Positions 693-57,198 of a stretch of DNA of 64,000 nt are shown here, piece after piece (position 1 is the first letter of the stretch; each line of letters begins with the position of its first letter). The stretch comes from Phytohabitans rumicis (GTDB lineage Bacteria > Actinomycetota > Actinomycetes > Mycobacteriales > Micromonosporaceae). The position numbers and the translations under genes were made by a program. The stretch spans positions 6,899,001 through 6,963,000 of the forward strand of contig NZ_BLPG01000001.1 of the NCBI RefSeq assembly GCF_011764445.1, written 5' to 3'. Below the pieces are notes generated by a model, which worked only from the letters and a program-made list of their open reading frames with translations, had not been told where the DNA came from and did no database searches.

Positions 693-815
693 CGCCGATC
701 AAGGACTTCCGCGTCGATCAAGGGCAAACGGCCGTGGAAAAGAGATCAAAGCACGACCATATGCCCTTGATCGGCGGGCGGGCCCTTGATCGGCGGGCGG
801 GGCCTTGATCGGCGC
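693..815 (+). repeat. Intergenic 63-bp inverted-repeat element, copy E1 (core 713-775)
   Basis: The core is 63 bp with arms beginning GATCAAGGGC and ending GCCCTTGATC around an asymmetric centre containing GATCAAA, which reads on the plus strand here. One half-site lies to the left (from 693) and two to the right (784-793 and 803-812). It sits between the end of the leftward ASCH gene and the start of the leftward SRPBCC gene. Confidence 0.9.
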
Positions 816-902
816 GCACGGGCGGCGCCCGCGTGGGCGCCGCGGTGGGTGGGGCGGCGCGGGCGGGGCGGCGCGGGTGGAGAGGGTGGAGAGGGCCGTC
901 GT

Positions 903-1486
903 TTAGAGGGGGCGGTGGGTTAGGTAGGTGTGGCCGCGGGGGCTTAGGCGGTAGCCGACCTCGAGGGACTCGGTCAGGCCGAGCGCCTTGAGCTTGCGTA
1001 CGTCGGCCTTGAACGTCGGCGTGTCCCGGCCGAGTGAGGCGGCCAGGTCGGCGGCGCGTACGCCGGGGTGGTCGGCGATCACCTTGAGGGCGGCTGCGGT
1101 CCAGGGCCGCGCGGGCTGGCGTGATCCAGGCGGGCAAGGCGCAGGTCGATGGCGGCCACGCCAGCGCCGTCGAGGTGGTCGTCGGCGGCGAGGGCGGCGC
1201 GCGGGTCGGGGCCGTCGACGCGGTGGAACCGCAGCAGGTAGAGCTGCCCATCGGGTGGGCCGCCGAGGTCGGCGAGCATCGCGGCGACGTTCGGGAAGCC
1301 GGCGGCGCGGGCGTCTCGCGGCGTCAGGTCCGGCGGGTTTACCGGCTCCACACTGGACATTTCGACGAGCCCGGCGCCGGTGCGGTACTGCCGTCCGGCG
1401 ACCACCTGCGGGCGCCGCCACCGCCGCAGCGCCGCCGTGATGGTCCCGCTGGCGATCCCTTCGCGGAGTCGCCGCTCAAAGAGCAT
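903..1486 (-). CDS. ASCH-domain protein with C-terminal winged-helix-like region, frameshifted
   Basis: The N-terminal part (from ATG 1486, MLFERRLREGIASGTITAAL) resembles ASCH domains, PUA-like folds thought to bind RNA or modified nucleotides. The C-terminal part (WTAAALKVIADHPGVRAADL, then a predicted recognition helix) resembles a small winged helix. The two parts are in different frames. Adding one base to the GGG run at 1104-1106 joins them through RGPWTAAALKV and gives 194 residues. The start overlaps the end of the amidohydrolase gene by 11 bp, so it is the last gene of a leftward operon. The likeliest explanation for the break is a one-base sequence error. Confidence 0.7.
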
Positions 1487-2368
1487 GGGAACCAGTTAGC
1501 CCCAAGGTCGACCACAGGTTGTGCCAGCACACCGCGCGCAGCCACGCGTCGCCTAGGTCCAGGCGCACCAGGCCCTGGAGTTGGTCCGCGTATTCGTAGG
1601 GGATGTTGGGGAAGTCGGTGCCGAGGAGGATCTTGCCGGCTTGGCCCAGGTCGCGCAGCCTGGGGCGCTCCTCAAGGGGGAAGGGCACCAGTTGGTCGAA
1701 GAAGGGGGTGAAGACCATCGTGGTGTCCAGCGCTACCCGTTCGTACCTCGTGGCCAGGTCGAGGAACGTCGAGTAGTCGGGCGAGCCCATGTGGGCCACG
1801 ATCGCGGTGAGCCGCGGGTGCCGCGCCAGCAGCGCGGTGAACGGTTCGGGCCCGGTGAACGAGGCGGCCATCGGCGCGTGCCCGGCGTGTACGACCACCG
1901 GGATCCCGGCGTCGGAGAGCATGCCCCACACGGGGCCAGCAGCGGGTCCACCGGGTCGAACCCGCCCACCTGCAGGTGCACCTTGAAGACCCGCGCGCCG
2001 GAGGAGACGGCGGAGGACACGTACGAAGTCACGGAGGGTTCGGGGTAGAACGTCGCGGACGGCACGCATCCGGGCGTCTCGCGGGCGAAGCCGAGCGTCC
2101 AGTCGTTGAGGTCGGCCGCCATGCCCGGTTTGTGCGCGTACGCCAGGGCGGTGAACGCGCGTACGCCGAGTTTGTCGAGGTGGGCGACCCGGTCGGCGTC
2201 CGGCCAGCGGTACCGGATCGGCCACTCCACGCCGACCAGCGGGCCGGCCGCGTCGAAGTACGCCCACACCCGGCGCAGCATCCGGGGCGGCAGGAAGTGC
2301 ACGTGCACGTCGGCCAGGCCGGGGAGGCCCAGAGCTTGCCAGAAGGCGGGAACCTCGGAGTCGTTCAC
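1476..2368 (-). CDS. Amidohydrolase-family metal-dependent hydrolase, frameshifted
   Basis: Starts at a GTG (2368) that overlaps the stop of the upstream membrane-protein gene as GTGA. Metal-site motifs of the amidohydrolase superfamily are visible: DVHVHF near residue 18, VVHAGHAP, IVAHMGSPDY, and GTDFPNIPYEY near the C-terminus. The reading frame breaks after DPVDPLLAP. One extra C in the run at 1932-1935 (G on the plus strand) restores PVWGMLSDAGIP and a 297-residue protein, the normal size for a TIM-barrel hydrolase of the ACMSD/gamma-resorcylate decarboxylase type. Substrate is unknown. Confidence 0.8.
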
Positions 2369-3207
2369 ACCTCGATATTGAACCGGCGCAACACCGACGG
2401 CGCCAGCAGGCCGGTCGCCGCCAGCAGCGAGACCACCATGAACGCGCCGCGCAGGACGTACACCTCGACCGCGCCACCCGCGCGCAGGGCGATGGAGTCC
2501 GGCAGGCCGATCATGCGCCACATCCGCCGCCCGGTCGGGATGGGCCACAGGAGCGGCACGCCGGCCCGGGTGATGAGGTCGCCGAGCAGGTGCACCAGAC
2601 AGCCGACGCCCACGGCCAGGCCGAGCAAGGGGTAGCCGCGGTCGCCGGGCAGCCGCAGGTACACGCCGTACGCCGCGGCCGCCGAGATCAGCGTGACGAG
2701 CACCCAGCCGGCCCGCTTGGCCCACTCGTCGAAGAGCCCGCGTAGCGCCAGGCCGATCATCACGAAGAGGATGCCGATGACGGCCCACTTGCCGTACGCG
2801 GTGCACAGTGCCGTCGTGCCCCAGCCGACCAGCGCGGTGAACGGCAGCGTGTGGGTCAGCGTCCGATGCCCGTTCTCCCGGTCGGGGTCGTCGCTGCGCC
2901 GGGTGGCGTGGTAGACGCCGAGGGACAGCTTCTCGATCACCTCAGCGACGAACAGCGACGCCACCCCGAACGTCCGGGCCACCGTCGCGCCGCCTTTGTT
3001 GCGGGTGACCTTCCCGGACATGTCGAGGTCGGGAAAGAGCGCGCCGCCCGCGCACACGGCCGTGCCGACCGCGATGAGGAGCGGCGACTGCTCGTACCCG
3101 GCGAACTTGTCCAAGGCCCACGAACCCGCCAGCCATACGGCGGCGCCGGAAAGAGCGTGCGACGGTCCCATCATGACGCGGGACTGTGTCAGCGGGACCG
3201 TCCACAT
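2365..3207 (-). CDS. YdjM/DUF457-like inner-membrane metal-dependent hydrolase
   Basis: The protein is 280 residues with about six membrane segments. It shows the motifs of the YdjM (LexA-regulated, DUF457) family: an early GPSHALSG, a FPDLDMSGKV, GHRTLTHTLPF and GCLVHLLGDLIT. The His/Asp residues are likely metal ligands facing the membrane. The ATG at 3207 has a weak binding site; ATGs at 3174 or 3171, just before GPSHAL, are plausible alternative starts. The gene starts 4 bp after the DUF1707 gene ends and overlaps the amidohydrolase start, so it is part of a four-gene operon. Confidence 0.8.
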   Translation of the reverse strand: MWTVPLTQSRVMMGPSHALSGAAVWLAGSWALDKFAGYEQSPLLIAVGTAVCAGGALFPDLDMSGKVTRNKGGATVARTFGVASLFVAEVIEKLSLGVYHATRRSDDPDRENGHRTLTHTLPFTALVGWGTTALCTAYGKWAVIGILFVMIGLALRGLFDEWAKRAGWVLVTLISAAAAYGVYLRLPGDRGYPLLGLAVGVGCLVHLLGDLITRAGVPLLWPIPTGRRMWRMIGLPDSIALRAGGAVEVYVLRGAFMVVSLLAATGLLAPSVLRRFNIEV

Positions 3208-3211
3208 TCAA

Positions 3212-3649
3212 CTACCGCCACGGTGGCCCGTGCCACATCCTCCGATGCGCGTAGTGCCGGTGCCAGGCCGCGTGCCTGGCCACCCCGAAGAACAGGAACG
3301 CCAGCGGGATGACCGGCCAGAAGAAGTGCGCCCCGGACAGCGCCCACAGGCCGACGAGGATCACCGCGACGAACGCCACCCCGCCGACGTGCCGGCGCAT
3401 CAGCCGCCGGGCGAACGCTCTCGCCTCGGGCGTCTCCGCCAGGGCACGCCGGCCCCCGTCGGGCAGGTCCGCGGCGAGCGGGGCCAGTTCGTCGCGGAAC
3501 GTCGCCGCGTACGCCGCGGCCAGCCGCTGCTCGCCCTCGGTCAGGTCGAGCCGCCCCTCGGTCATCGCGGCGCGGAGGATGTGGGCCATCTGTTCGCGTT
3601 CGGCGTCGGAGGCTCGTACGCGGCCGGCGCCGGTTCCCGTTGCTGTCAT
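3212..3649 (-). CDS. DUF1707 (SHOCT-like) protein with two membrane segments
   Basis: The 145-residue product has a DUF1707 domain at its start (VRASDAEREQMAHILRAAM, then DLTEGEQRLAAAYAA) and two closely spaced hydrophobic helices (VAFVAVILVGLWALSG and FFWPVIPLAFLFFGVAR) before a basic His-rich tail. The function of the family is unknown; it is common in actinomycetes next to sensor kinases, as here, where a kinase gene starts about 140 bp away on the other strand. The ATG at 3649 was chosen because DUF1707 begins only a few residues later. Confidence 0.85.
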   Translation of the reverse strand: MTATGTGAGRVRASDAEREQMAHILRAAMTEGRLDLTEGEQRLAAAYAATFRDELAPLAADLPDGGRRALAETPEARAFARRLMRRHVGGVAFVAVILVGLWALSGAHFFWPVIPLAFLFFGVARHAAWHRHYAHRRMWHGPPWR

Positions 3650-3787
3650 GTCATCGAGGGTCCCCAAACGGCGGGCCGTGCGCGTCGGGCGGGCGGAGGC
3701 ATCTGCCGGGCCGCGCGCTACGCCCCGTGGAGTAGGCGGCCCCGGCGCGTACGCCCGCCGGGGTAGGGCGATCGCCGCCGGGAGCCG

Positions 3788-5022
3788 ATGCCGCGGGGCC
3801 GGGCGGTGGCCTACGGTCAGGGCGTGGGGATCGATAGGCGCTGGGAGAGGCGCTGGGAGTGGCCGCCGGAACGCCGCTGGCAGCCGCACCGGCAGGCCGC
3901 GCGGCACGCGAAGAGCGCCGTCGGCATGGGGATCGTGACCGGCATCGTGCAGGTCGCCGCCGCCCGCTCGGCCAGCGTCGACCCGGACGCGGTCGGGTAC
4001 GCCCTGCTGCTCGCCGGCCCGCTCGCCCTGCCGTTGCGGTTCAAGTTCCCGGTACCCGTGTACGCCGTCGCCGTCGCGGCGACGGTCGGCTTCGCGGCGT
4101 GGGCGGCCGAGCCGCGCGGACCGTACTTCTTCGCCGCGCTGGTCGCGCTCTTCGCCGTGGTCGGGGCGGGGGCGCGGGCGGCGGCCTGGGGCCTGACCTT
4201 CGCCGGCTACGCCGGCTACCTGGCCGTCACCCGCCCGGAGTTGGGCCACGCGGCGCTCGTCGGAGTGGCCACCGCCGTCGCGGTCCTGCTGGCGGAGGCT
4301 TCCCGGGTACGCCGGCAGCACTTCGCCGAGATGGCGAAGTACCGGGCGGAGCAGCAGAAGGCGCGGGCCGAGCAGCAGCGGCGGCAGGCCAGCGAGGAGC
4401 GGCTGCGGATCGCCCGGGAGTTGCACGACGTTCTCGGTCACCACCTGTCGCTGATCAACGTGCAGGCGGGGTGGGCCTGCACCTGATGGACACGCGGCCC
4501 GAGCAGGCGCGGGAGGCGCTCACCGCGATCAAGTCGGCGAGCGCGGAGGCGCTGCGCGAGGTGCGGTCGGTGCTCGGCGTGTTGCGGCCGGAGGAGGAGG
4601 CCGCTCCGCGTGCGCCGGCGCCCACCGTGGCCCGGCTGGACGACCTGACCGCGGGCGCCGGGCTGCCGGTGCGCACGGTGGTGGAGGGTACGGCCCGGCC
4701 GCTGCCGGCGGAGGTGGACCGGGCGGCGTACCGGATCGTGCAGGAGGCGCTCACCAACGTGCGCCGGCATGCCGGGGCCGGGGCGACGGCGACGGTCACC
4801 ATCGGGTACGGCGGCACCGTGGTTACCGTCGAGGTCGTGGACGACGGGGTGGGCGGTCCCGCCTCGTCGGAGGCGGACAACGGGGCGGAAGGGGCGGGCA
4901 ACGGGATAGCGGGCATGCGGGCCCGCGCGTCGGCGCTCGGCGGCACGCTGAGCGCGGGCCCGGTGGACGGCGGTGGGTTCCGCGTGGCGGTGACCCTGCC
5001 CTGGGAGGGTGCGCGTGATTGA
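3788..5022 (+). CDS. NarL-family sensor histidine kinase, frameshifted
   Basis: Has an N-terminal membrane region (about residues 45-165), a coiled linker rich in Gln/Arg, and a HisKA_3 box (RIARELHDVLGHHLSLINVQ, His in ELHDVLG). The ATPase part follows in another frame (QEALTNVRRHAG, then GNGIAGMRARASALGG). One added G in the GGGG run at 4468-4471 turns GWACT-stop into GVGLHLMDTRPEQ and gives a complete protein of about 411 residues. A GTG at 3824 is a possible alternative start. It overlaps its response-regulator gene by 14 bp. The signal is unknown. Confidence 0.88.
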
Positions 5023-5686
5023 CGTTCTGTTGGCCGACGACCAGGCGCTGGTGCGCGCGGGCTTCCGTGCGTTGCTGGACGCGGAGCCGGATATCGCCGT
5101 CGTGGGGGAGGCGGCGGACGGCGTCGAGGCGGTCCGGTTGGCCGCGGTGACCAGGCCCGACGTGGTGTTGATGGATATCCGGATGCCGGGCGTGGACGGG
5201 TTGGAGGCGACCCGGCGGATCGTTGCCGATCCGGGGTTGGTCGCCACGCGGATTGTCATCCTTACTACGTTTGAGTTGGACGAGTACTTGTTTGAGGCGT
5301 TGCGGGTGGGTGCGTCCGGGTTCCTGGTCAAGGACACCGAGCCGGTGGAGCTGCTGCGCGGCGTACGGGCGGTGGCGGCCGGGGACGCGTTGCTCTCGCC
5401 GGGGGTGACCCGGCGGCTGATCGCCGAGTTCGCCGGGCGCGGCGGGGTCCGCCCGGCCACCCCGGAGCTGTCGCTGGACCAGCTCACCGACCGGGAGCGC
5501 GAGGTGATGGCGCTGGTCGGCGCCGGCCTGTCGAACGAGCAGATCGCCGCGCGGCTGGTGGTGAGCCCGGCGACGGCGAAGACCCACGTGAGCCGCGCGA
5601 TGGTCAAGCTCGGCGCGCGGGACCGCGCCCAGTTGGTGGTCTACGCGTACGAGGCGGGCCTGGTCCGTCCGGGCTGGCTGGCCTAG
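5009..5686 (+). CDS. LuxR/NarL-family response regulator
   Basis: The 225-residue product has a receiver domain (residues 1-120, LLADDQALVRAGFRALL, acceptor Asp in VVLMDIRMPG, Lys in FLVKDTEP) and a C-terminal LuxR-type helix-turn-helix (LTDREREVMALVGAGLSNEQ, then TAKTHVSRAMVKLGARDR). It is the partner of the preceding kinase, with overlapping genes indicating translational coupling. The GTG at 5009 was chosen; a GTG two codons later would lose nothing conserved. The neighbouring genes on the other strand are not obvious targets. Confidence 0.93.
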   Translation: MRVIDVLLADDQALVRAGFRALLDAEPDIAVVGEAADGVEAVRLAAVTRPDVVLMDIRMPGVDGLEATRRIVADPGLVATRIVILTTFELDEYLFEALRVGASGFLVKDTEPVELLRGVRAVAAGDALLSPGVTRRLIAEFAGRGGVRPATPELSLDQLTDREREVMALVGAGLSNEQIAARLVVSPATAKTHVSRAMVKLGARDRAQLVVYAYEAGLVRPGWLA

Positions 5687-5711
5687 CCCGCCGGGGTGAA
5701 GCTGGCGTTGA

Positions 5712-7279
5712 TCATCCGTAGCTGGGGAGCGCGCCGGGCCAGTCCAGGTCGCGGGTGATCCAGATGATGGTGTAGGCCAGACCGGGGGCGGTGCGGAAGA
5801 GCTCCTGCCGGGCGCGCAGGCGGTCGCCCTTGGTGTTGGTCCAGGTGCAGTCCCAGTCGGCGCCGCCGGCGAAGTAGCGGTTGGGCAGGATCGCGACCCG
5901 GCTGTAGCCGGACAGGCCGCCGGTGGCGGTCACCCGCTTCTCCTCGAACTTCCAGTGCGCGACCGCGTCGCCGATCAGGTCGGGCTCGGTGTCGACGGCG
6001 AGCAGCCGGGGCCCGCCGGGCTCGCGGAAGCACACCACGTCGCCGTCCCGGAAGTACGTCCAGGTCGCCGGCGCGGCCATCTCGAAGCCGGTCGGGTCGG
6101 CGTGCCACACGAAGCCGTCGGCCAGCGCGTACCGGTGGGTGGCGGGCACGGGCGGGCGGGTCTGGCCGGGGCCGGTGGGCGGGGAGCCGCACGGCATCGC
6201 GCTGCCCGCGCCCGCGCCGCCGGCGGGTGCGGACGCGCCACCGATCGCCGCCAGCCGTGCCGTGCCGCGCTCCCCGCCGGTGTCGAGGAGCACCGCGACG
6301 CCGACCGTGACCAGGGTCGCCACCACCGCGGCGGCGGCGCCCGCGGCCAGGTAGCGCCGGCGGCGGTGCGGGTTGCCCGCGGGGAACTCCGGCCGGACGT
6401 GCTCGGTGGTGCGGCGGGGCAGGGGCAGCCGCCGGGTACGCGCCGGCGTCGTCCCCGCGGGCGGTGTCGCGGCCCGGCGCAGCAGGCGTTCGGCCTCCTC
6501 GGCGGTGAGCCGGTGCCGCGGGTCCTTGCGCAGCAGGCCGCCGAGCACGGGGCGCAGCGCGCCGGCCCGGGGCGCGGGGTCGGGCGGGGCGGTCGCCAGG
6601 GCAGTCAGGGTGGCCATCGTGGTGGACCGCGCGTACGGCGAGCGGCCCTCCACGGCCGCGAAAAGCGTTGCGCCCAGCGACCACAGGTCGGTCTCCACAG
6701 TGGACACACCGTCGCTGGCCCGCTCGGGCGCCACGTACTGGGGGAGCCCATGATCAGCCCGGCGCGGGTCATCGCCCCGTCGCCGCCGTCGAATGTCGCC
6801 AGGCCGAAGTCGGTGAGCACCACCCGGCCGTCCTCGGCGATGAGCACGTTGTGCGGCTTGACGTCCCGGTGCAGGACGCCGGCCTGGTGGGCGGCGCGCA
6901 GGGCGTACAGGACGGCCAGGCCGATCTGGGCGACCCGGTGCGGGGGGAGCGGCCCGTCCTGCTGGACGACCTCGTGCAGCGACCGGGAGCGGACGTACTC
7001 CATGACGATCCACGGCCGGCCCTCGGCGTAGACGACGTCGTAGATCTGCACCGCGTTGGGGTGGTTGAGCTGCGCGGCCGCGCGCGCCTCGCGGATCGTC
7101 ACCTCGCGCAGCAGGTCACGCTCGTCGGGCGTCATCCACTCCGGCGGCACGACCTCTTTGACCGCCACCTCGCGGCGCAGCATCTCGTCGCGCGCGAGCC
7201 AGACGCGGCCCATGCCACCAGTGCCGACCGGCTTGATCAAGCTGTACCGCTCGGCGATCAGTGCTCGCCACACGGACAC
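5712..7279 (-). CDS. Receptor-type Ser/Thr protein kinase (PASTA-less), frameshifted
   Basis: The N-terminal kinase domain has GTGGMGRV, VAVKEVV, HRDVKPHNVLI and TDFGLATF. The frame breaks inside the activation segment. One added base in the five-G run at 6740-6744 restores MGSPQYVAPERAS and the kinase C-lobe. A proline-rich linker, one membrane helix (YLAAGAAAAVVATLVTVGVA) and an extracellular domain of about 200 residues follow. Repaired length is about 522 residues. GTG at 7279 is preferred because a GGGGGA site precedes it; a longer start at 7315 and a shorter one at 7273 are possible. It is divergent from another kinase gene. Confidence 0.85.
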
Positions 7280-7491
7280 AAGGTTCCCCCAGTACGCTCC
7301 CCGGCCCACCACCATATGCAGCCGAGGCGGATAGAACGTTACGTATCAATAACAAACTACCCCCGAAACGTGAAACCTAGTCCAAAGGGCGGACCCGTCG
7401 GTGACCGTTAGGTCAGCGGGCTGGTTGCGGTGCCGATCGCGGTGGTCTTCAATCTCTTCCGGGAGCGCTTCATTGCGGGGGGACAGCAACG
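7280..7491. other. Divergent promoter region between two kinase genes
   Basis: About 210 bp between the starts of two receptor kinases, including an AT-rich patch near 7340-7365 that is unusual in this sequence and probably holds one or both promoters. A GGGGGGA ribosome binding site precedes the rightward kinase. No gene is seen. Confidence 0.5.
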
Positions 7492-9279: not shown

Positions 9280-9322
9280 GAAATGTGTCGCGGAGTCCGG
9301 CGCGGGCCGCGATGATCTTCGG

Positions 9323-12800: not shown

Positions 12801-12883
12801 CGTCGATCAAGGATTTCGCGTCGATCAAGGGCATATGGTCGTGGTTTGGTGATCAAAGCACGACCATTTGCCCTTGATCGACG
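12801..12883 (+). repeat. Intergenic 63-bp inverted-repeat element, copy E2 (core 12820-12882)
   Basis: The core has the GATCAAGGGC and GCCCTTGATC arms and the GATCAAA centre on the plus strand. A single half-site lies to the left at 12801-12818. It lies between convergent genes, about 25 bp from the stop codon of glgB. Confidence 0.9.
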
Positions 12884-20900: not shown

Positions 20901-20925
20901 CCCGCCCTTTGCCCCCGCTCTCCCC

Positions 20926-21008
20926 GTCGATCAAGGGCAAACGGTCGTGCTTTGATCTCCAAACCACGACCCTTTGCCCTTGATCGGCGTCGAAATCCTT
21001 GATCGGCG
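20926..21008 (-). repeat. Intergenic 63-bp inverted-repeat element, copy E3 (core 20926-20988)
   Basis: The core is inverted relative to E1: its centre reads TTTGATCTCC on the plus strand. One half-site lies to the right at 20995-21008. It starts 25 bp after the GH63-like gene stops, as if serving as its 3' end. It is paired with E4, 218 bp away. Confidence 0.9.
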
Positions 21009-21185: not shown

Positions 21186-21289
21186 CGCCGATCAAGGGCC
21201 ACCCTCGCGATCAAGGGCAAACGGTCGTGGATCTGAGATCAAAGCGCGGCCATATGCCCTTGATCGGCGGGCAGGTCCTTGATCGGCGC
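21186..21289 (+). repeat. Intergenic 63-bp inverted-repeat element, copy E4 (core 21206-21268)
   Basis: The core centre (GAGATCAAA) is on the plus strand and half-sites flank it on both sides (21186-21198 and 21276-21289). The first two core bases differ from the other copies. It lies about 60 bp before the operators of the Clp-N gene. Confidence 0.9.
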
Positions 21290-31310: not shown

Positions 31311-31336
31311 GCACGCCGCCGCCGAGCCCTTGAGCC

Positions 31337-31416
31337 GTCGATCAAGGGCAAATGGTCGTGGTTTGATCTCCAATCCACAGCCGTTTGCCCTTGATCGACG
31401 CAAAATCCCTTGATCC
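31337..31416 (-). repeat. Intergenic 63-bp inverted-repeat element, copy E5 (core 31337-31399)
   Basis: An inverted copy lying between the convergent sugC and secreted-protein genes. The right half-site (31406-31419) runs into the stop codon of the leftward gene, so the element forms the 3' ends of both transcripts. Confidence 0.9.
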
Positions 31417-32244
31417 TCAGGTGGGGACCGTGGCGCAAACCACGTACGTGGTGATGCCGTACCGCACGGTCAGCGTGGTGTTGACGTAGTGCGTGGTCCA
31501 GTCCGAGAGACTGGAGATCGTCGAGCGGTCGACCAGCCAGCGGGTCGCGCCGCCGTGGGCCCAGCCGCCGCCCACCGCCAGGTTGAAGGTCGGGGTGCTG
31601 GAGCAGGTCGCGGCCAGGTTGACCGAGGTCCCGGGCTCGAGAATCGCGCTCCGGCTGACGACCTGGCGCCCGGGGAACACCGCGCAGACGGCGTAGGTGG
31701 TGACCGAGCGGCTGACCGTCGTGGCGTTGTACGGCATCACCGACCAGCCCTGCCCGGTGGTGGCGGGGCGGGAGGACATCACCGTGAACCGGGGGACGGG
31801 GTCGATGCGGTACCCGCCGCCGGTGTTCGACGTGCCGGTCGGGCACGCCTGCGTCACGTCCGGATTCGCGCCCGGCGCGACCGACGCGGTGCGGGAGACA
31901 AACGTCCGCCCGTCGATGCTGGCGCAGACCGCGAAGACGTCGACCGTCTGGGTCGTGCCGAGCGTGTTGAGGGCACTGAGGAACCACCCGTTGCTGTTCG
32001 TCGACGGCCGCGAGGCGTCGATGATCACGTCGTTGACGGTGCTGGCAGAGAACCCGCCGCTGATCGCGACGCCCCAGCTCTGGCAGTTGACGGTGATCGT
32101 GCCCGACGCGCTCGGCGCCAGCGTGAGCGTCCCGCGCCGGGTTTCCATGGCGCGCAGGTCCGCCTCGGCGGCACCGGCGCCGGCCACCGACACGAGAATC
32201 GCCGCTGCCACGACGACGGCCAGCCGGCCTGTGGTGTGCATCAT
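31417..32244 (-). CDS. Secreted protein with internal repeated domain, hypothetical
   Basis: The 275-residue product has a signal peptide (LAVVVAAAILVSVAGAGAAEA). The mature part repeats a pattern of about 90 residues: a CPTG/CQSW Cys, GGG or SGGF, a W in GWFLSA, GWSVMP or DWTTHY, and an ending TYAVCA or TYVVCA. That makes roughly three beta-rich domains, each with two Cys. No family is recognised. GAGGAGG precedes two adjacent ATGs (32244 and 32241). It is translated from the same message as the CBM2-like gene upstream. Confidence 0.75.
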   Translation of the reverse strand: MMHTTGRLAVVVAAAILVSVAGAGAAEADLRAMETRRGTLTLAPSASGTITVNCQSWGVAISGGFSASTVNDVIIDASRPSTNSNGWFLSALNTLGTTQTVDVFAVCASIDGRTFVSRTASVAPGANPDVTQACPTGTSNTGGGYRIDPVPRFTVMSSRPATTGQGWSVMPYNATTVSRSVTTYAVCAVFPGRQVVSRSAILEPGTSVNLAATCSSTPTFNLAVGGGWAHGGATRWLVDRSTISSLSDWTTHYVNTTLTVRYGITTYVVCATVPT

Positions 32245-42666: not shown

Positions 42667-42790
42667 CGCGTCGATCAAGGCTTTGCGCGTCGATCAAGGG
42701 CTTCCGCGTCGATCAAGGGCGAATGGCCGTGCTTTGATCTCCAAACCACGACCGTTTGCCCTTGATCGACGCGCAAAGCCTTGATCGACG
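42667..42790 (-). repeat. Intergenic 63-bp inverted-repeat element, copy E6 (core 42708-42770), with nested 31-bp arms
   Basis: An inverted copy between the convergent roadblock and kinase genes. Beyond the core, 42670-42700 and 42759-42789 are perfect 31-bp inverted repeats that include a second half-site. The left side carries one half-site more than the right, as if one had been duplicated. Confidence 0.92.
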
Positions 42791-46907: not shown

Positions 46908-46945
46908 GTTCGGGTCTCCTCGGTGGTGGCCCATCCCCCTTGGTC

Positions 46946-47673: not shown

Positions 47674-47687
47674 TGGAAGCGCTCCCA
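47674..47687. promoter_or_regulatory. CelR-type operator, distal to GH48
   Basis: TGGAAGCGCTCCCA matches the CelR consensus at 13 of 14 positions. It is about 390 bp upstream of the GH48 start and may cooperate with the site at 47851-47864. Confidence 0.75.
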
Positions 47688-47850
47688 TCGACGTTGGTTG
47701 GACTGTAGTACCCGTTACGGCTTTGTGAAAGACCCAAAACAAGATCGAAACACCTAGCCAACCGCAATGAAACCCGTGGATGTCGCTAGATCGCAGGTCA
47801 GGAGCGGTTTCGGGGATCGAGCGCCAGGGCAAAAACGCGCCCACTTGCTG

Positions 47851-47864
47851 CGGGAGCGCTCCCA
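47851..47864. promoter_or_regulatory. CelR-type operator, proximal to GH48
   Basis: CGGGAGCGCTCCCA matches the CelR consensus at 13 of 14 positions. It lies about 210 bp before the GH48 ATG, which implies a long 5' leader if it overlaps the promoter. Confidence 0.78.
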
Positions 47865-48076
47865 TGCAAGACTGTCGAAACATCGCGTGAGGGAGCCAAC
47901 ACCGCGCGAACCGAGGGCCGCCGAGGGCATCCGAGTCTAGGGACGGCGCCCCACATTGCTCAGTTGTGAACTGCCCCCGGCGCCTTCCGCCCTACGCGCC
48001 GCTCGTCATCACCGCGTAGAAGGCGCCAGCCGAAGCCCTCCTGGGCTCGGCTCGGTCCGCGAGGAGACACTCCACA

Positions 48077-51006: not shown

Positions 51007-51023
51007 CAACCGATCGGCAACCC

Positions 51024-51067
51024 CCTCGGGTGGGGATGGTTCCTCTCCTTCCCATCCCCACCCGAGG
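51024..51067 (+). terminator. Terminator after GH48
   Basis: A perfect 16-bp stem (51024-51039 with 51052-51067) and 12-nt loop start 17 bp after the GH48 stop. A pyrimidine-rich tract follows rather than a strict T run. Confidence 0.85.
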
Positions 51068-51085
51068 TACCCCTCTCATCTAGTC

Positions 51086-51139
51086 AGCCTGATTCCCACG
51101 GTCAGGCTTGCTAGACGGCCTGATTCCCACGGTCAGGCC
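51086..51139. repeat. Two tandem hairpins with covarying stems
   Basis: Two 31-bp-spaced units share the loop TTCCCACGG. The first stem is AGCCTGA (51086-51092) with TCAGGCT (51102-51108). The second is GGCCTGA (51117-51123) with TCAGGCC (51133-51139). The single stem difference is compensated on the other side, so the pairing itself seems to be kept. Confidence 0.8.
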
Positions 51140-51145
51140 AGCTAG

Positions 51146-51193
51146 TGGTGGGCCGGCCGGATTGGCCAACGCAGCGGTCCGGCTGGCCCACCA
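51146..51193 (-). terminator. Inverted repeat downstream of the leftward secreted-protein gene
   Basis: TGGTGGGCC at 51146-51154 pairs with 51185-51193, with further partial pairing inside. It starts about 50 bp after the stop of the leftward gene and could be its terminator. Confidence 0.5.
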
Positions 51194-51245
51194 CCCCAAA
51201 TCATCCGGGCGGGTGGCACTACGGTGTCACTCGCCCGGCTCAATG

Positions 51246-51827
51246 TCACGACCGGTAGCAGCGCCAGGCGTTGGGATCGCGACCGTTGGACGTCTGCGCG
51301 AACGCGCTGCTCCCGTAGCGGATCCGGCACGCTGCGTTCATGTCCACGGTGGTGGGTGGCACGCCCCAGCGAAAGCACCACCAGCGCCCGTCGCCCTGCT
51401 GGCCCGGCTGCACGTAGGAGTCGCGGTCGCGCTGCTTGCACCAGGCGTCGGTGATGCCCCACAACTGGCCGCTGTCGCTCGGCCCGAGCAGGACCGGTTC
51501 GCGGGGCGGCGCGGCCGTCGTACGCCGCGGCGTCGGGCTGCTGCGGGCCACCGGCTGGCGCGACGAGGCCGTCGGCTTCGGCTTCGCCCACGACGGTGCG
51601 GGCGTGGGGGCCGCCGTCGGCGGCGCGACCTGCGTCACGGACTCCAGCGGCGTGGGTACGACGAAAGGGGCCGGCTCGGCGCTCTCGGCGGTGACCGACT
51701 GCGCGGAGTTCCAGGTCAGGCTCGTGCCGGAGACGAACGGCACCGAGCAGAGCAGCACCAGTGTGCCCAGCCCCACGGCCGCGCCCAGCCAGCCATACTC
51801 CCGCGCCAGCCGCTGCACCATGCTCAC
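51246..51827 (-). CDS. Membrane-anchored or secreted Pro/Ala-rich protein with C-terminal Cys domain, hypothetical
   Basis: The 193-residue product has an N-terminal hydrophobic segment (about 13-33, LGAAVGLGTLVLLCSVPFVS), a Pro/Ala/Thr-rich spacer to about residue 110, and a compact C-terminal domain with three Cys and several Trp (DAWCKQRDRDSYVQPGQQGD, then RWWCFRWGVPP and AACRIRYGSSAFAQ). The spacer suggests the domain is held away from the membrane. No family is recognised. The C-terminal domain looks like a small extracellular binding module. Confidence 0.75.
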   Translation of the reverse strand: MSMVQRLAREYGWLGAAVGLGTLVLLCSVPFVSGTSLTWNSAQSVTAESAEPAPFVVPTPLESVTQVAPPTAAPTPAPSWAKPKPTASSRQPVARSSPTPRRTTAAPPREPVLLGPSDSGQLWGITDAWCKQRDRDSYVQPGQQGDGRWWCFRWGVPPTTVDMNAACRIRYGSSAFAQTSNGRDPNAWRCYRS

Positions 51828-51890
51828 CGCGGCACTCTAACCACTCGTGTCACTCGGTGACTCCCACGACAGGCCAGGTCAAGGTCCATT

Positions 51891-52011
51891 TGTCGGTCAG
51901 CCGACAGCCAGCCATTTCGCGCGGGATCAGGCACATTCGCGTACCCCACAAACCGCCGGATGGGGTAACCTGTTTAAAGGAGAGGCCGCTTCCCCCGTGG
52001 CGGCCTCTCCT
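51891..52011 (+). ncRNA. Candidate small RNA ending in an intrinsic terminator
   Basis: A chain of hairpins without an open frame: 51891-51896 with 51901-51906 (TCAG loop), and TACCCCA at 51942-51948 with 51961-51967. It ends in a perfect 12-bp stem (51978-51989 with 52000-52011) followed by CTTTGT. A smaller stem lies before it at 51849-51861. No gene ends here on the plus strand, since the upstream gene reads away, so the terminator is an orphan. The identity is unknown and the promoter is not seen. Confidence 0.4.
51978..52011 (+). terminator. Orphan 12-bp terminator hairpin upstream of the acyltransferase gene
   Basis: AGGAGAGGCCGC pairs perfectly with 52000-52011 around a 10-nt loop. 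AAA precedes it and TTT follows, so it could work in both directions. It is 64 bp before the acyltransferase start, which makes it either the end of a small transcript or a leader attenuator for that gene. Confidence 0.8.
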
Positions 52012-52075
52012 CTTTGTGGTTTGGGGTCCTCGCTGCGTTTGTCGCGTCTCCGCTCGTGTGGTTGGCTAGGTCCCC

Positions 52076-53152
52076 GTGCCCCGACTGCCGTCGCTGACCG
52101 GACTACGTTTCGCCGCCGCCTTCCTGGTGTTCGGGCTGCACGCGTACTCCTTCGTTCCGCTCGTCGACCCGTTCGCGCGGCGGGTCGCCAAGCTCCTGTT
52201 CGACGCCGGTGACCTGGGCGTCTCGTTCTTCTTCGTGCTGTCCGGCTTCGTGCTGACCTGGTCGGTCAAGCCCGGCCGCACGCCATGGCGCTTCTGGCAG
52301 GGGCGGATCGCGCGGGTCTACCCGGCGCACCTCATCGCGCTCGCGCTCGCCGTGGGCTCACTCGTCGTGACCGACCGGATACCGCCGATCTTCTGGGAGC
52401 CGCTCGGCGCCAGCGCGCTGCTCGTGCACGGCTGGTACACACAGGACTTCGTCTACCTCGGCATCAACCCGGTGGCCTGGTCGCTGTCCGCCGAGATGTT
52501 CTTCTACCTGTGCTTCCCGCTGCTACACGCGGGCCTGCGCCGGCTGCGCCCCGCGTACCTGTACGCCATCGGCGCCGCCCTCATCGCGGTGACCTGGCTC
52601 ATGCCGGCCATCGCCACGGTCGCGGTGGCGCCCGAGCACGAACGCTGGTTCGTCTACATCTTCCCGGTGACCCGGATGGCCGAGTTCACGCTCGGCATCG
52701 TGCTGGCGCGGCTGGTCATCGTCGGCGCGTGGCGCGGGCCGGGGCTGCGCCTGGCCACCGGCCTGTTCCTGGCGAACTACCTCGCCGTCGGCTGGGCGCC
52801 CGCGCAGACCCGCGACACCGCGGCCACCATCGTCGGGACCGCGCTGCTCATCCCCGCGGCCGCGCGCGCCGACCTGAGCGGCGCCCGGTCGGTGTGGCGG
52901 CATCCGGTGGCCGTGCACCTCGGCGAGGTGTCGTACGCGTTCTTCCTGGTGCACCTGCTGGTCATCGTCACCGCGGTCGAGCTCTTCGAGATGCGCGGAC
53001 CGTGGGCGTTCTGGCCGGCGGTCGGGATCGCCGCCGGCCTGCTCGCCGCCGCGTACGCCCTGGCGTACGCGGTGCACCGCTTCGTCGAGGTGCCGGGGAT
53101 GCGGCTGCTGTCGCCTAGCCGGCGCTCGCCAGCGGCAGCGTCACGCGGCTAG
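52076..53152 (+). CDS. Acyltransferase family 3 (OafA-like) membrane protein
   Basis: The 358-residue protein has about 10 membrane helices. It starts LPSLTGLRFAAAFLVFGLHA, with the conserved Arg and His of acyltransferase-3, and contains FFFVLSGFVLTWS, RIARVYPAHLIAL and WSLSAEMFFYL. These enzymes O-acylate sugars, lipids or antibiotics at the membrane. The GTG at 52076 is the only good start. Its end overlaps the convergent peptidase gene by 38 bp. Confidence 0.9.
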   Translation: MPRLPSLTGLRFAAAFLVFGLHAYSFVPLVDPFARRVAKLLFDAGDLGVSFFFVLSGFVLTWSVKPGRTPWRFWQGRIARVYPAHLIALALAVGSLVVTDRIPPIFWEPLGASALLVHGWYTQDFVYLGINPVAWSLSAEMFFYLCFPLLHAGLRRLRPAYLYAIGAALIAVTWLMPAIATVAVAPEHERWFVYIFPVTRMAEFTLGIVLARLVIVGAWRGPGLRLATGLFLANYLAVGWAPAQTRDTAATIVGTALLIPAAARADLSGARSVWRHPVAVHLGEVSYAFFLVHLLVIVTAVELFEMRGPWAFWPAVGIAAGLLAAAYALAYAVHRFVEVPGMRLLSPSRRSPAAASRG

Positions 53153-54947
53153 CGCGCAGGTCCACGGTGACCTGCGTGCCGGCCCGGTAGCGCAGCGTGT
53201 AGTCGCGGTCGGTCGAGATGAGCACGATCCCGATCCGGTGCCCGGCCGCGAAGACGTGGTCCTGCGGTTGCATGCCCCAGGAGAACGAGTACGCCTTACC
53301 GGGCGTGATCGGGTCGGTACGCCAGATCGACTTCCGGTTGCGCACGTCCAGCCAGCCCCGGGACACGATCTTCCACGGCGTGGACTCCACGGTGTACCGC
53401 ACGCGGTTGAAGCAGCCCGGGTCGCCGGGGATGCTGGGGCCGACGCAGTCCTGGCCCTCGCCCGGCGCCAGACCGGTCGCCCGGTCCGCCGTGCCGTAGT
53501 CGACCAGCAGCGCGGTCAGGTACGGCGAGCGACCGTCCAGGCTGGCCCGCACGTCCAGCCGCGGCGTCCCGGACAGGTGCAGCGGCCGGTCCAGCGGCGC
53601 GGTGAGGAACGCCAGCCGGTTGGGGTCGGCGGCCTGCTCGCCCGCGACCAGGTCCTCCGCGGTACGGCTCGGCGCGTCCACGAAGCTGGTGCCCTGCCCG
53701 GCCACGGCGAGCGGGCCGAGGCGCAGCGTGGTCGCCCGGGTGCCCGGCACCGGCCAATTGCGGTAGGTACGCCACTGGTTCGGCGCGACCTCGACGTCGG
53801 CCACCGGCTCGGCCATGATGCCGTTGTCGACCCGGTGCAGCCAGCTATCGAACCAGCGGTGCAGGGTCGCGACCCACTCCGCGCGGCGTACCGAGAACGG
53901 GCTGGTGTGCGGGCCCTGGTGCAGCCAGATCTTGCGCGGCACGCCCCGGGCCGCCAGCGCGTCCCACCACTGTCCGAAGTGCTGGGTCTTGACGTTCCAG
54001 TCGTTGAGGCCGTGCACGAGCAGCACGCTGGCCCGCACCTTGCCGGCGTCGCGCAGATAGTCGCGCTCCTGCCAGAACCTGCTGTAGTCGCCGGTTTCCC
54101 GGTCCTGGTCCCGCTCCAGCGCGGCGATCACGTCCGCGCACTGCTCCGGCCGCTGGCGGGTCAGCACCGCCTTGGCCAGGATGTCGGTGTCCTCGCCCTG
54201 GAAGCCGCCGGGGGCCACCACGCCGCCGTTGGCGCGGTAGTAGTCGTACCAGCTGGAGATGGCGGCGATCGGCACGATGGTCTCCAGGCCGCGCACCCCG
54301 GTCGCGGCGACCGCGTTGGGCAGCGTGCCGTTGTACGACGTACCCGTCATGCCGACCCGGCCGCTGGACCAGCGCGCGGCGGCCGGGCGGCCGTCGACGT
54401 CGGTGGCCCGGGCCCGCCCGGTCAGCCAGTCCACGACCGCCTTCATGCCGAGGGTCTCGTTCTCCCCGCCGGAGGTGGGGCAGCCGTCCGAGCCGCCGCT
54501 GCCGAGGCTGTCCGCGAACACCACCGCGTAGCCGCGCGGCACGAAGTAGTTGTCCAGGAACCCGCCGAAGAAGATCTCCTCCTCGACGCTGCGCGCGGCG
54601 GCCCACCGGGTGGCCGCGCCCGCGTCGTCCCGGTCGATGTCGTCGTGGTTGGGCACGTCGAGGATGCCGGCGTAGTACGGGCTCGGCTGGAAGATCGTGG
54701 GTACGCGCAGGCCCTGCTCGGTCTCGCGCGGCCGGATGATCCGCGCCTCCACCCGGTCGCGCCGGCCGTCGCCGTCGCTGTCGACCGTGGTCTCGATGAA
54801 GACCCGCTCCCGGATCGCCTGCGTGTAGTCGAACACCGGCTGGGTCACCCCGTCCCGCACCACCACCCGGGGCGCGGCGGACGCCGCCGCGGGACTCGCG
54901 AGTGTGACGATCATGCCGGCCAGCGCTGCCCCCATCAACCATCGCAT
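53115..54947 (-). CDS. Secreted S15-family Xaa-Pro dipeptidyl-peptidase (CocE/NonD-like)
   Basis: The 610-residue enzyme has a signal peptide (about 1-25) and an alpha/beta hydrolase domain with nucleophile Ser in GMTGTSYNGTLPNAVAATG, Asp in VHGLNDWNVK and His in HQGPHTSPF. A C-terminal jelly-roll domain follows (about 370-610). This is the X-Pro dipeptidyl-peptidase layout, cutting N-terminal Xaa-Pro pairs, though esterase or acylase activity occurs in relatives. ATG 54947 was chosen at the signal peptide; the open frame continues upstream over the LLM gene and is not coding there. Confidence 0.9.
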   Translation of the reverse strand: MRWLMGAALAGMIVTLASPAAASAAPRVVVRDGVTQPVFDYTQAIRERVFIETTVDSDGDGRRDRVEARIIRPRETEQGLRVPTIFQPSPYYAGILDVPNHDDIDRDDAGAATRWAAARSVEEEIFFGGFLDNYFVPRGYAVVFADSLGSGGSDGCPTSGGENETLGMKAVVDWLTGRARATDVDGRPAAARWSSGRVGMTGTSYNGTLPNAVAATGVRGLETIVPIAAISSWYDYYRANGGVVAPGGFQGEDTDILAKAVLTRQRPEQCADVIAALERDQDRETGDYSRFWQERDYLRDAGKVRASVLLVHGLNDWNVKTQHFGQWWDALAARGVPRKIWLHQGPHTSPFSVRRAEWVATLHRWFDSWLHRVDNGIMAEPVADVEVAPNQWRTYRNWPVPGTRATTLRLGPLAVAGQGTSFVDAPSRTAEDLVAGEQAADPNRLAFLTAPLDRPLHLSGTPRLDVRASLDGRSPYLTALLVDYGTADRATGLAPGEGQDCVGPSIPGDPGCFNRVRYTVESTPWKIVSRGWLDVRNRKSIWRTDPITPGKAYSFSWGMQPQDHVFAAGHRIGIVLISTDRDYTLRYRAGTQVTVDLRASRVTLPLASAG

Positions 54948-54957
54948 GGCATCGACC

Positions 54958-55839
54958 CTAGCGGATGAGTGCGGGCAACACGCCGGTCGCGACCTCCTCC
55001 AGGACGGCTTCGTCGCCGGCGTACCAGCTGCTGGCGCGCGGCCAGTGGGTGACGACGTCGGTGAAGCCGTGCTCCGCCGCCCGCCCGACCGCGTCGGCGA
55101 AGTAGGCCGCGCTGGACAGCGAGAACACCGGCGCCGCGTCGAGCGAGAGGTACCTGTCCACGGTGGACGGATCTTTTTGTTCTTTCGCGAGCGTCTCGTC
55201 GAAGCGGTCGGCGTTGTCCCGTACCGCCCGCCACCACTGGTCCAGGTCGGTGGTCTTGGCGCCGGTCGTGATCCAGCCGGTGCCGTAGCGGGCGGCCAGC
55301 CGCATCGAGCGCGGACCGTTGGCGGCGACCACGAACGGCACTCGCGGCGACTGCACACTCCCGGGCGTGCCGCGCGCGTCGACGGCCGCGTAGTGCTCGC
55401 CGCGTACGGTCACCGGCTCGTCGCGCAGCAGCCGGTCGAGCACGTCGAGGAACTCGGCGAACCGGTCGACCCGGGCCCGCGCGGACAGCGCCGGCCAGCC
55501 CAGCACGTCGGCGTCGTACCCGCCGATGCCGCCCGCGCCCACGCCGAGCGTCAGCCGGCCGCCGGAGATGTCGTCCAGCGCCGTCACCTCCCGGGCGAAG
55601 TGCACCGGGTGCCGGAAGTTGGGCGAGGCCACCAGCGTGCCCAGCCGGATCCGCGACGTCACCATGGCGGCAGCGGTCAGCGTCGGCACCGCGTCGAACC
55701 AGGGCCCGTCGACCAGGTCGCGCCAGCCGACGTGGTCGTAGGTCCAGGCGTGGTCGAAGCCGTACGCCTCCGCGCGCCGCCAGCGCTCCGCGGCCGTCGC
55801 CCACCGCTGGTCCGCCAGAATCACGATGCCCACCCGCAT
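54958..55839 (-). CDS. LLM-class flavin-dependent oxidoreductase
   Basis: The 293-residue TIM-barrel protein has the bacterial-luciferase-like fold: GIVILADQRW, AEAYGFDHAWTYDHVGW, RIRLGTLVASPNFRHPVHFA, SGGRLTLGVGAGGIGGY and VPFVVAANGPRSMRLAARYG. It would use F420 or FMN; in actinomycetes F420 is likely. The substrate is unknown. It lies just upstream of the peptidase gene (10-bp gap), and is divergent from the acetamidase gene. Confidence 0.9.
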   Translation of the reverse strand: MRVGIVILADQRWATAAERWRRAEAYGFDHAWTYDHVGWRDLVDGPWFDAVPTLTAAAMVTSRIRLGTLVASPNFRHPVHFAREVTALDDISGGRLTLGVGAGGIGGYDADVLGWPALSARARVDRFAEFLDVLDRLLRDEPVTVRGEHYAAVDARGTPGSVQSPRVPFVVAANGPRSMRLAARYGTGWITTGAKTTDLDQWWRAVRDNADRFDETLAKEQKDPSTVDRYLSLDAAPVFSLSSAAYFADAVGRAAEHGFTDVVTHWPRASSWYAGDEAVLEEVATGVLPALIR

Positions 55840-55862
55840 GCGGGGCCACGCTACCCTGCGCT

Positions 55863-56792
55863 ATGCACGTTCTTGAGCCGGACGCTCGAACCCTGCACGG
55901 CTACTTCTCCCCGGACTACCCGCCGGTGCTCACCGTCGAGCCCGGCGACACGGTCCGGTTCTCCACTCTCGACTGCTGGTGGTCGGCCGGGCCGTACACC
56001 GGTGGCGGCATCCAGAACCGGCCGCGCGCCGAGCACTACCGCGCCGGGTACGGGCACGCCCTGGTCGGCCCGATCGCGGTGCGCGGCGCCCGGCCGGGCA
56101 TGGTGCTGGAGGTGCGCGTCGACGCGGTGGTCCCGGCCACCTGGGGCACCTGCGTGGCCGGCGGCTGGCCCAGCGCGTTCAACGAGCGGTACGGCGAGCT
56201 GGGCGAGACGGCAGTACACACCTGGGAGCTCGACCCCGAGGCGATGACCGGCCGCAACCAGCACGGCCATGGGGTGACGCTGCGGCCGTTCCTCGGCGTG
56301 ATGGGGATGCCGCCGGCTGAGCCGGGTGAGCACTCGACCATCCCGCCGCGCCGGCACGGCGGCAACCTCGACTGCCGCGACCTGGTCGCCGGCAGCACCC
56401 TGTACCTGCCGGTTCCGGTCGAGGGCGCGCTGTTCTCGGCCGGCGACGGGCACGCGAAGCAGGGCGACGGCGAGGTCAGCGGCACGGCGATCGAGTGCCC
56501 GATGGACCGGGTCGAGCTGACGTTCGGGCTGCGCGACGACTGGGCGCTGACCGGCCCGGTCGCTCGTACGGCGGCCGGCTGGCTGACGATGGGCCTGGGT
56601 CCGACCCTGGACGACGCCACGTACGAGGCGCTGGAGGCGATGTTCGCGCTGCTGGGCCGGCTGCACGGGGTGTCCCGCCGGGACGCGATCGCGCTGGCCA
56701 GCGTCGCCGTCGACGTCCGCGTCACCCAAATCGTCAACCAAACGGTCGGCGTGCACGCCGTCCTCCCCCACGACGCACTCCACACCGCGTGA
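55863..56792 (+). CDS. Acetamidase/formamidase-family protein
   Basis: The 309-residue protein has the FmdA/AmdA layout: HGYFSPDYPPVLTVEPGDTV, GPIAVRGARPGMVLEVRVD, HGGNLDCRDLVAGSTLYLPV and FSAGDGHAKQGDGEVSGTAI. The Asp, His and Glu in the last two stretches bind metal in the family. It hydrolyses small amides to ammonia and an acid. The divergent neighbour starts 23 bp away. Confidence 0.92.
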   Translation: MHVLEPDARTLHGYFSPDYPPVLTVEPGDTVRFSTLDCWWSAGPYTGGGIQNRPRAEHYRAGYGHALVGPIAVRGARPGMVLEVRVDAVVPATWGTCVAGGWPSAFNERYGELGETAVHTWELDPEAMTGRNQHGHGVTLRPFLGVMGMPPAEPGEHSTIPPRRHGGNLDCRDLVAGSTLYLPVPVEGALFSAGDGHAKQGDGEVSGTAIECPMDRVELTFGLRDDWALTGPVARTAAGWLTMGLGPTLDDATYEALEAMFALLGRLHGVSRRDAIALASVAVDVRVTQIVNQTVGVHAVLPHDALHTA

Positions 56793-56833
56793 CCGCGCCC
56801 CGCCCGCGGCGGGCGCCCCCCGTGCCCTCCGCC

Positions 56834-56938
56834 CGCCGATCAAGGACAACCCCGTCGATCAAGGGCAAACGGTCGTGGATCGGAGATCAAACCACGACCA
56901 TTCGCCCTTGATCGGCGAGGAGGTCCTTGATCGGCGGG
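56834..56938 (+). repeat. Intergenic 63-bp inverted-repeat element, copy E7 (core 56854-56916)
   Basis: The core centre (GGAGATCAAA) is on the plus strand, with one half-site on each side (from 56834 and at 56923-56936). It lies about 60 bp after the acetamidase stop. It is paired with E8 in the same orientation. Confidence 0.92.
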
Positions 56939-57025
56939 CGAGCGTCAACATCCGCCATGCCGGACCTCTGTTCGTGCGTGAGGTGCGGCTCCCGGTCCGG
57001 GCGGACCGGTCGGCGTACACCGCCT

Positions 57026-57198
57026 CGCCGATCAAGGGAAGGTGCGTCGATCAAGGGCATATGGCCGTGGTTCGGAGATCAAACCACGGCCATATGCCCT
57101 TGATCGGCGGGGAGGTCCTTGATCGGCGGGGAGGTCCTTGATCGGCGGGGAGGTCCTTGATCGAGGGGGAACGGCGAGGGGGTCCTTGATCGAGGGGC
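57026..57198 (+). repeat. Intergenic 63-bp inverted-repeat element, copy E8 (core 57046-57108), with tandem half-site array
   Basis: The core has the most perfect arms of all copies, with GGGCATATGGCCGTGG matched fully on the other side. On the right, a 19-bp unit containing CCTTGATCGG is repeated three times (about 57112-57168) and a fourth, changed copy follows near 57181-57194. The array ends about 15 bp from the stop of the DUF1772-like gene. Confidence 0.92.

What the first reader, a model, noticed from the sequence alone, without database searches (positions are those of the whole stretch)
693..57198. Eight copies of an oriented 63-bp intergenic inverted-repeat element
Cores at 713-775, 12820-12882, 20926-20988, 21206-21268, 31337-31399, 42708-42770, 56854-56916 and 57046-57108 are all exactly 63 bp. 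All share arms starting GATCAAGGGC and ending GCCCTTGATC and an off-centre GATCAAA block that gives each copy an orientation (five plus, three minus). Arm sequences vary, partly in step. All lie between genes; five (E2, E5, E6, E7, E8) lie between convergent genes. The fixed length, the asymmetric centre and the satellite half-sites do not look like simple terminators; they suggest a REP/BIME-like or non-autonomous mobile family, or a site for a chromosome-wide binding protein. I do not know of a description of this family. No RAYT-type transposase is in the window.
Basis: seen in the sequence. Interest (0 to 1): 0.8.

Follow-up and report, generated by a model that had tools for sequence, protein, structure and literature searches.

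The report
Oriented GATC-ended palindromic gene-end repeats
The eight spots are copies of a short, directional, palindromic DNA repeat that occurs about five hundred times in this bacterium's genome, mostly just past the ends of genes; it behaves like a small passive jumping element, but what moves it could not be found.

Summary
In detail: all eight copies are present and shuffles give none. The repeat is longer than described: an oriented, sharply bounded unit of 84 bp with a GATCAAGG half-site 19 bp upstream of a 57-bp core. Genome-wide, 496 of 515 strict copies carry that half-site. Copies sit at gene ends: 48 of 109 sampled lie in convergent spacers, against 2.1% of random positions.

The family is patchy. 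Two of six Phytohabitans genomes hold hundreds of copies; the other four hold a different 48-bp GATC-ended palindrome instead, 10 to 338 copies each. Arms are species-specific, yet within a genome the two arms vary independently.

Best reading: a REP/MITE-like, non-autonomous mobile repeat. No Y1 (RAYT-type) transposase was found in the nine richest genomes and no target duplication stood out. It fails the one-sided GTAG and CGTC tags of REPs. Rivals are binding sites of a lineage-specific protein, and RNA 3'-end hairpins. Mobility and its agent are inferred, not shown. Seven literature searches listed no description.

The parts
693..776 (+). E1, 84-bp oriented unit; core 716-772; 5' half-site at 697; two further inverted half-sites 3' (784, 803)
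   Evidence: boundaries from column information
12801..12883 (+). E2, 83-bp unit (half-site spacing 18); core 12823-12879; convergent spacer; no 3' half-site
20925..21008 (-). E3, 84-bp unit; core 20929-20985; no 3' half-site; first of a minus-plus pair with E4
21186..21269 (+). E4, 84-bp unit; core 21209-21265; one 3' half-site (21277)
31336..31419 (-). E5, 84-bp unit; core 31340-31396; fills a short convergent spacer; no 3' half-site
42707..42790 (-). E6, 84-bp unit; core 42711-42767; convergent spacer; two 3' half-sites (42692, 42673)
56834..56917 (+). E7, 84-bp unit; core 56857-56913; convergent spacer shared with E8; one 3' half-site (56925)
57026..57109 (+). E8, 84-bp unit; core 57049-57105; three 3' half-sites at 19-bp steps (57117, 57136, 57155)

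Best explanation
The sites are copies of a REP/MITE-like, non-autonomous mobile repeat of 84 bp. Anatomy, shown: CGYC GATCAAGG N11 GATCAAGGGC RWAYGGYCGYG, an off-centre GAGATCAAA, the same arm inverted, then CCTTGATC GRCG. The ends form a 12-bp terminal inverted repeat, and the 5' half-site gives a fixed polarity. Mechanism, inferred: one trans-acting protein that is not a Y1/RAYT transposase reads both arms and the 5' half-site as double-stranded DNA and moves or copies the unit. Copies persist where they do least harm, just past stop codons and above all between convergent genes, more often with the 3' end towards the nearer stop codon. Because one protein reads both arms, the arms change together when its specificity changes, which gives each species its own arm sequence; when it is lost, another family can take over. 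Effects on transcription ends or mRNA would be secondary. Shown: copy number, boundaries, polarity, location, patchiness, species-specific arms. Not shown: mobility itself, the protein, its chemistry.
For: Copy number 527 with control 0; 5' half-site in 496 of 515 strict copies and in 264 of 307 in G057. Conservation falls to background just outside the unit in 66 G000 and 29 G057 copies. 48 of 109 copies convergent against 208 of 10,072 random positions; median 71 bp after a stop codon; 57 of 84 with the 3' end to the nearer stop, p 0.0014. Pairs: 15 minus-plus, 4 plus-plus, 1 minus-minus, 0 plus-minus. Patchy: hundreds in G000 and G057, no core in 300 kb of four congeners, which carry family B. 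One spacer: G057 73 bp with an ordinary terminator-like hairpin, G000 keeps a similar hairpin and has two elements added beside it.
Against: No target-site duplication stood out. No autonomous copy in the roughly 2 Mb read and no candidate enzyme: Y1_Tnp absent, Y2_Tnp search uninformative because its controls were silent. No clean filled/empty pair with exact junctions. Linkage between distant columns is weak, 16 of 253 column pairs at p <= 0.0025 and mostly neighbours, so few subfamilies of recent common descent. In G057 the orientation bias is absent (6 of 10).
Confidence: 0.6

Rival explanations
1. The copies are double-stranded binding sites of a lineage-specific chromosome-binding protein. 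Each arm and the 5' half-site is one half-site of a degenerate motif; selection at each place, not mobility, keeps them.
For: Both arms use the same two-state positions, and the arms of one copy vary independently; linkage is mostly local. Fixed geometry with half-sites 19 bp apart. Symmetrical change of both arms between G000 and G057. Five of eight G000-occupied spacers that I could read are also occupied in G057.
Against: Four congeners lack the family in all orthologous flanks read (22 flanks; no core in 300 kb), so no conserved cell function can depend on it. Hundreds of sites would have to change in step. Strong preference for gene ends and a sharply bounded 84-bp unit are more typical of a mobile unit.
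Confidence: 0.2
2. The copies are RNA-level 3'-end hairpins (two-way terminators or mRNA stabilisers) of the upstream genes.
For: Median 71 bp after a stop codon and convergent preference. Very stable folds, mean -35.9 and -36.7 kcal/mol for the two strands. Across three genomes 9 of 26 stem pairs show changes on both sides (18 sequences, 10 of them picked by exact outer arms).
Against: Arms swapped between copies fold as well as real copies (-35.92, sd 0.33, and -36.80, sd 0.33). In G047 two mid-stem positions pair in only 12% and 30% of 43 copies. A separate terminator-like hairpin is kept beside elements in the one spacer where I could compare. No U-tract. Congeners do without it at the same gene ends.
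Confidence: 0.15

Closest known systems
REP elements, GTAG- and CGTC-tagged super-families (PMC3733652; search listing and passages seen)
   Same: Intergenic palindromes in high copy number, mainly between convergent and same-direction genes, downstream of coding regions, often in opposite-orientation pairs, species-specific, unevenly spread among species. CGTC REPs are also reported without a dedicated transposase.
   Different: Stem arms of about 22 bp or more instead of 5-13 bp; no one-sided unpaired GTAG or CGTC tag; 84-bp fixed unit with terminal inverted repeats and an extra half-site; no RAYT found; host in Micromonosporaceae, which the passages seen do not mention.
MITEs (non-autonomous miniature inverted-repeat elements; general knowledge, and passages of PMC3733652 and PMC2817692)
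   Same: Short, non-coding, sharp ends with a 12-bp terminal inverted repeat, intergenic, high copy number.
   Different: No target-site duplication stood out, no parent element found, and a third direct copy of the end motif inside the unit.
Intrinsic (bidirectional) terminators
   Same: Hairpins between convergent genes just past stop codons.
   Different: No U-tract, sequence conserved in hundreds of copies, pairing not kept copy by copy, added beside an existing terminator-like hairpin in one compared spacer.

Membership tests
GTAG-tagged REP with RAYT | GTAG or variant at one, unpaired, end | tested here: not met
   Consensus ends are CGYCGATCAAGG and CCTTGATCGRCG
GTAG-tagged REP with RAYT | Y1 tyrosine transposase (RAYT) in the genome | tested here: not met
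   PF01797: 0 matches in G000, G057, G027, G048, G047, G010, G068, G074, G038; G008 (9 model hits) has two partial matches; controls rang in 5 of 14
CGTC-tagged REP | CGTC at one unpaired end only, stem 8-9 bp, CCA-like tail | tested here: not met
   CGTC precedes the core in G000 but is mirrored by GACG on the other side, and reads CATC in G057; stem about 22 bp
REP-like repeats in the wide sense | High copy number, gene-end location, opposite-orientation pairs, species-specific families | tested here: met
MITE | Terminal inverted repeats and sharp boundaries | tested here: met
   12-bp inverted ends, conservation drop outside the unit
MITE | Target-site duplication | tested here: not met
   No length/offset combination stood out; best was 11 observed against 5.4 expected for a 2-mer among about 2,000 combinations
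MITE | Autonomous parent element with the same ends | tested here: inconclusive
   None in about 2 Mb of G000; three 5' modules without a core behind them, two inside a half-site array and one truncated copy; rest of genome not read
Rfam families | Match at gathering score | tested here: not met
   0 matches in the window
Intrinsic terminator | RNA 3' ends at the element in vivo | not testable with these tools
   No transcriptome data at hand

The most novel reading that the evidence does not exclude
The family is one branch of a superfamily of GATC-ended palindromic repeats of Micromonosporaceae. Each species is dominated by one fixed-length family, sister species carry mutually exclusive families, and copies at shared gene ends are rewritten to the species' own arm sequence. 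That would need an undescribed, non-RAYT enzyme that homes repeats onto old repeats or onto gene ends.
Probability: 0.25. Interest if true: 0.8.

Novelty: new variant of a known kind. Interest (0 to 1): 0.58.

Why it matters
REP repeats are described mainly from Proteobacteria, and RAYTs are the proposed movers of the GTAG kind (passages of PMC3733652 and PMC2817692). A family with hundreds of oriented copies, sharp ends, mutual exclusion between sister species and no RAYT raises the question which other enzyme can do this. Two Phytohabitans genomes with family A and four with family B make that directly testable by comparing gene content. It also warns that gene-end hairpins in these bacteria need not be terminators.

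Tried and rejected
Rejected: mobilisation by a Y1/RAYT transposase in the copy-rich genomes tested (G008, with 9 model hits, does have two partial Y1 matches). A 63-bp unit. Pairing of arms kept copy by copy. Carriage by plasmids or viruses: no match to one copy (E7 with flanks) in 72,556 plasmid records and none to an arm pattern in IMG/VR; the phage collection was not searched. My early note that contigs C2 and C3 lack copies rested on one 20-kb tile each; 18 tiles of C2 hold 21 and the pieces of C3 hold 1. Integron attC sites were considered from recall only and not tested.

Led nowhere: Y2_Tnp (PF04986) was silent in all 17 genomes and in all controls, so it shows nothing. BLAST of element flanks for an empty paralogous site: only 39 of 2,065 lines were printed, all from one half-site array, so it answers nothing. 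The general GATC..GAGATC..GATC pattern has a coding-sequence background of roughly 10-30 per genome, so small excesses in some genomes (for example G232, 57) were not followed. More G-U wobbles on one strand (94 against 59) come from cells that are not independent. The structure, fold and padloc/phrogs/ncbifam tools were not used; Pfam was used only for eight neighbouring genes.

Rows dropped: one diverged copy (L087 10869) of 67; G057 edge and duplicate copies (24 counted of 31 listed) and unorientable ones; one 57-bp entry of 44; one search used the first 100 listed of 527. In one search the P. suffuscus set contained an overlapping locus (L141), so its 6 family-B matches are 4 distinct copies in 80 kb. 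Gene contexts come from my own coding-score gene finder and are approximate.

Full report
Observation. The eight cores exist as described and the pattern is absent from 100 dinucleotide-preserving shuffles. The window lies in a 10.71-Mb assembly of three contigs. The genus appears to be Phytohabitans: G031 has the contig length of P. suffuscus NBRC 105367 and G091 that of a P. maris scaffold; G057 has that of a scaffold deposited as Micromonospora sp. CPCC 205371. No call named the window's own species.

Anatomy. A covariance model found 67 distinct copies in the window and 60 sampled 20-kb stretches (1.264 Mb). Oriented by the off-centre GAGATC, 61 carry the GATCAAGG half-site on the 5' side and 31 on the 3' side; when only one is present it is 5' in 33 and 3' in 3; 3 have none. 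Conservation falls to background outside the ends CGYCGATCAAGG and CCTTGATCGRCG in 66 G000 and 29 G057 copies, which gives a unit of 84 bp; the printed column labels include a zero, so the 83 columns used leave out the first base. All eight window copies have the 5' half-site, at 19 bp in seven and 18 bp in E2. Strict whole-genome counts: G000 515 copies, 496 with the 5' half-site, 242 with a 3' one; G057 307, 264 and 7 (G057 is in 480 contigs, so edge copies are lost). Where printed, 3' half-sites of G057 look like inverted 5' modules.

Copy number and spread. 527 copies with exact 10-bp arms, reversed control 0; the 575 allow wider gaps and may count extra half-sites. Copies occur on C1 (58 in 58 tiles), C2 (21 in 18 tiles) and C3 (1). 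Density is uneven: one copy in the eight tiles from 0.58 to 1.72 Mb.

Location. Of 109 copies in 2.01 Mb, 48 lie in convergent spacers, 37 tandem, 12 divergent, 9 inside called genes, 3 at edges; of 10,072 random positions 208, 933, 490, 8,378 and 63. The median distance to the nearest stop codon is 71 bp. The element's 3' end points to the nearer stop codon in 57 of 84 (p 0.0014; 38 of 60, p 0.05, in the smaller first sample). Neighbouring pairs under 900 bp apart: 15 minus-plus, 4 plus-plus, 1 minus-minus, 0 plus-minus. On one G057 contig (14 copies) the context is similar, but orientation is 6 of 10.

Distribution. With exact arms 9 of 300 family genomes have a match; only G000 (575), G057 (387) and G027 (5) have more than one. 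Rich: G000, G057, G027, G048, G074, G038 (50 each, the cap), G047 (48); fewer in G068 (24), G010 (21), G008 (9). In G048, G047, G010 and G068 the ends read CGATCTAGG..CCTAGATCG, with 77, 44, 19 and 11 copies; G006 and G067, of the same genus as G047, have none. I saw the 5' half-site unit only in G000 and G057; it was not looked for systematically elsewhere.

Sister-species exclusion. In 22 orthologous gene-end flanks of G031, G091, G077 and G103 I saw no copy, and a script found no core in 300 kb of these genomes. They hold instead a 48-bp family GATCGTGGTA..TACCACGATC: 338 (G031), 153 (G091), 94 (G077) and 10 (G103), against 0 in G000 and 0 in G057. Exact 10-bp inverted arms that begin with GATC occur more often per site than those that begin with other palindromic tetramers in the G000, G057 and P. 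suffuscus sets and in 77 other family loci (29 of 10,079 GATC sites there, shuffle 0); in the G077/G091/G103 set GATC is second to one CTAG case. In G000 most of this signal is the present family (67 of 88 GATC matches).

Arms. Between species the stem covaries (9 of 26 pairs changed on both sides in 18 sequences), and G000 and G057 differ symmetrically (GGYC against GCAC). Within genomes it does not: paired 85.4% and 83.7%, expected for independent arms 85.2% and 83.4%, and arms swapped between copies fold equally well. The same two-state positions occur in both arms. In G047 two mid-stem positions differ between the arms (12% and 30% paired of 43 copies). This is what one expects if each arm is read as double-stranded DNA by one protein; it speaks against a hairpin being kept copy by copy. 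Of 253 column pairs 16 are linked at p <= 0.0025 (0.6 expected), mostly neighbours, with a few distant pairs that point to some subfamily structure.

Orthologous gene ends, G000 against G057. Of eight G000-occupied spacers whose counterpart I could read, five are occupied in G057 (E3, E5, L097 17246, and spacers near 4.23 and 4.28 Mb) and three are not (E2, and spacers near 4.22 and 4.27 Mb). G057 also has a copy where G000 has none (C1:128105). At each shared place each species' copy has that species' arm type; the E5 counterpart is cut off by a contig end. This fits old copies overwritten in step or independent colonisation of favoured spacers; the preference for convergent spacers prevents a firm choice. 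In the spacer near 4.27 Mb G057 has 73 bp with an ordinary terminator-like hairpin, and G000 keeps a similar hairpin with two facing elements beside it. Among 80 orthologous loci of the E3 gene from named genomes, the model matched at E <= 1 in three (CPCC 205371, M. endophytica, M. okii).

Trans factor. Y1_Tnp is absent from the nine richest genomes tested; G008 has two partial matches. Y2_Tnp gave no information. No autonomous copy was seen in about 2 Mb. No match in plasmid records for one copy or in viral contigs for the arm pattern. No target-site duplication stood out.

Reading. The features are those reported for REP repeats (gene-end location, opposite-orientation pairs, species-specific families, uneven spread; PMC3733652, passages), but the tags that define both REP super-families and a RAYT are not met, so it should not be filed as a REP. 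I rate a REP/MITE-like non-autonomous mobile repeat at 0.6, protein-binding sites kept by selection at 0.2, and RNA 3'-end hairpins at 0.15. The mover, and mobility itself, remain inferred. Papers: seven search listings and passages of PMC3733652, PMC2267715 and PMC2817692 were seen; no paper was read whole.

Noticed in passing
G031, G091, G077, G103 (whole genomes): A second fixed-length family, 48-bp GATCGTGGTA..TACCACGATC, 338, 153, 94 and 10 copies, absent from G000 and G057; its arms also vary widely.
   Followed up: partly
G000 sample, e.g. L113 9308-9357, L103 7284-7333: A smaller 50-bp family in the same genome with ends GATCAAGGCGTCC or GATCAGGGCGTCC, 9 exact-arm cases in 1.264 Mb, and single GATCATGAAG-type palindromes.
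   Followed up: no
G000:C1 about 4.2835-4.2850 Mb (spacer 264xxx): A long spacer holding several unlike palindromes beside two elements of this family, as if such spacers collect repeats.
   Followed up: no
L187, L144, L145, L150, L172 just past the E3-gene orthologue: Other GATC-rich palindromes at the same gene end in Micromonospora species, for example GATCATGAGG..CCTCATGATC and GATCGTGCTCGATC..GATCGAGCACGATC.
   Followed up: no
L023, L024, L027, L029 (genus g19): A shared palindrome GTCCAAGGACCTGCTGTCGCGGTTCG..CGAACCACGACAACAGGTCCTTG in similar flanks in four genomes.
   Followed up: no
L280, position 9703 on the reverse strand: A truncated copy: 5' half-site and left arm, then unrelated sequence.
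   Followed up: no
window 633-686: Three tandem 18-bp repeats TGCTCCGCGCGCCGGCCG next to E1.
   Followed up: no
3' flanks of copies, e.g. window 57098-57170: The side beyond the element's 3' end often carries short local tandem repeats, some with the inverted half-site.
   Followed up: partly
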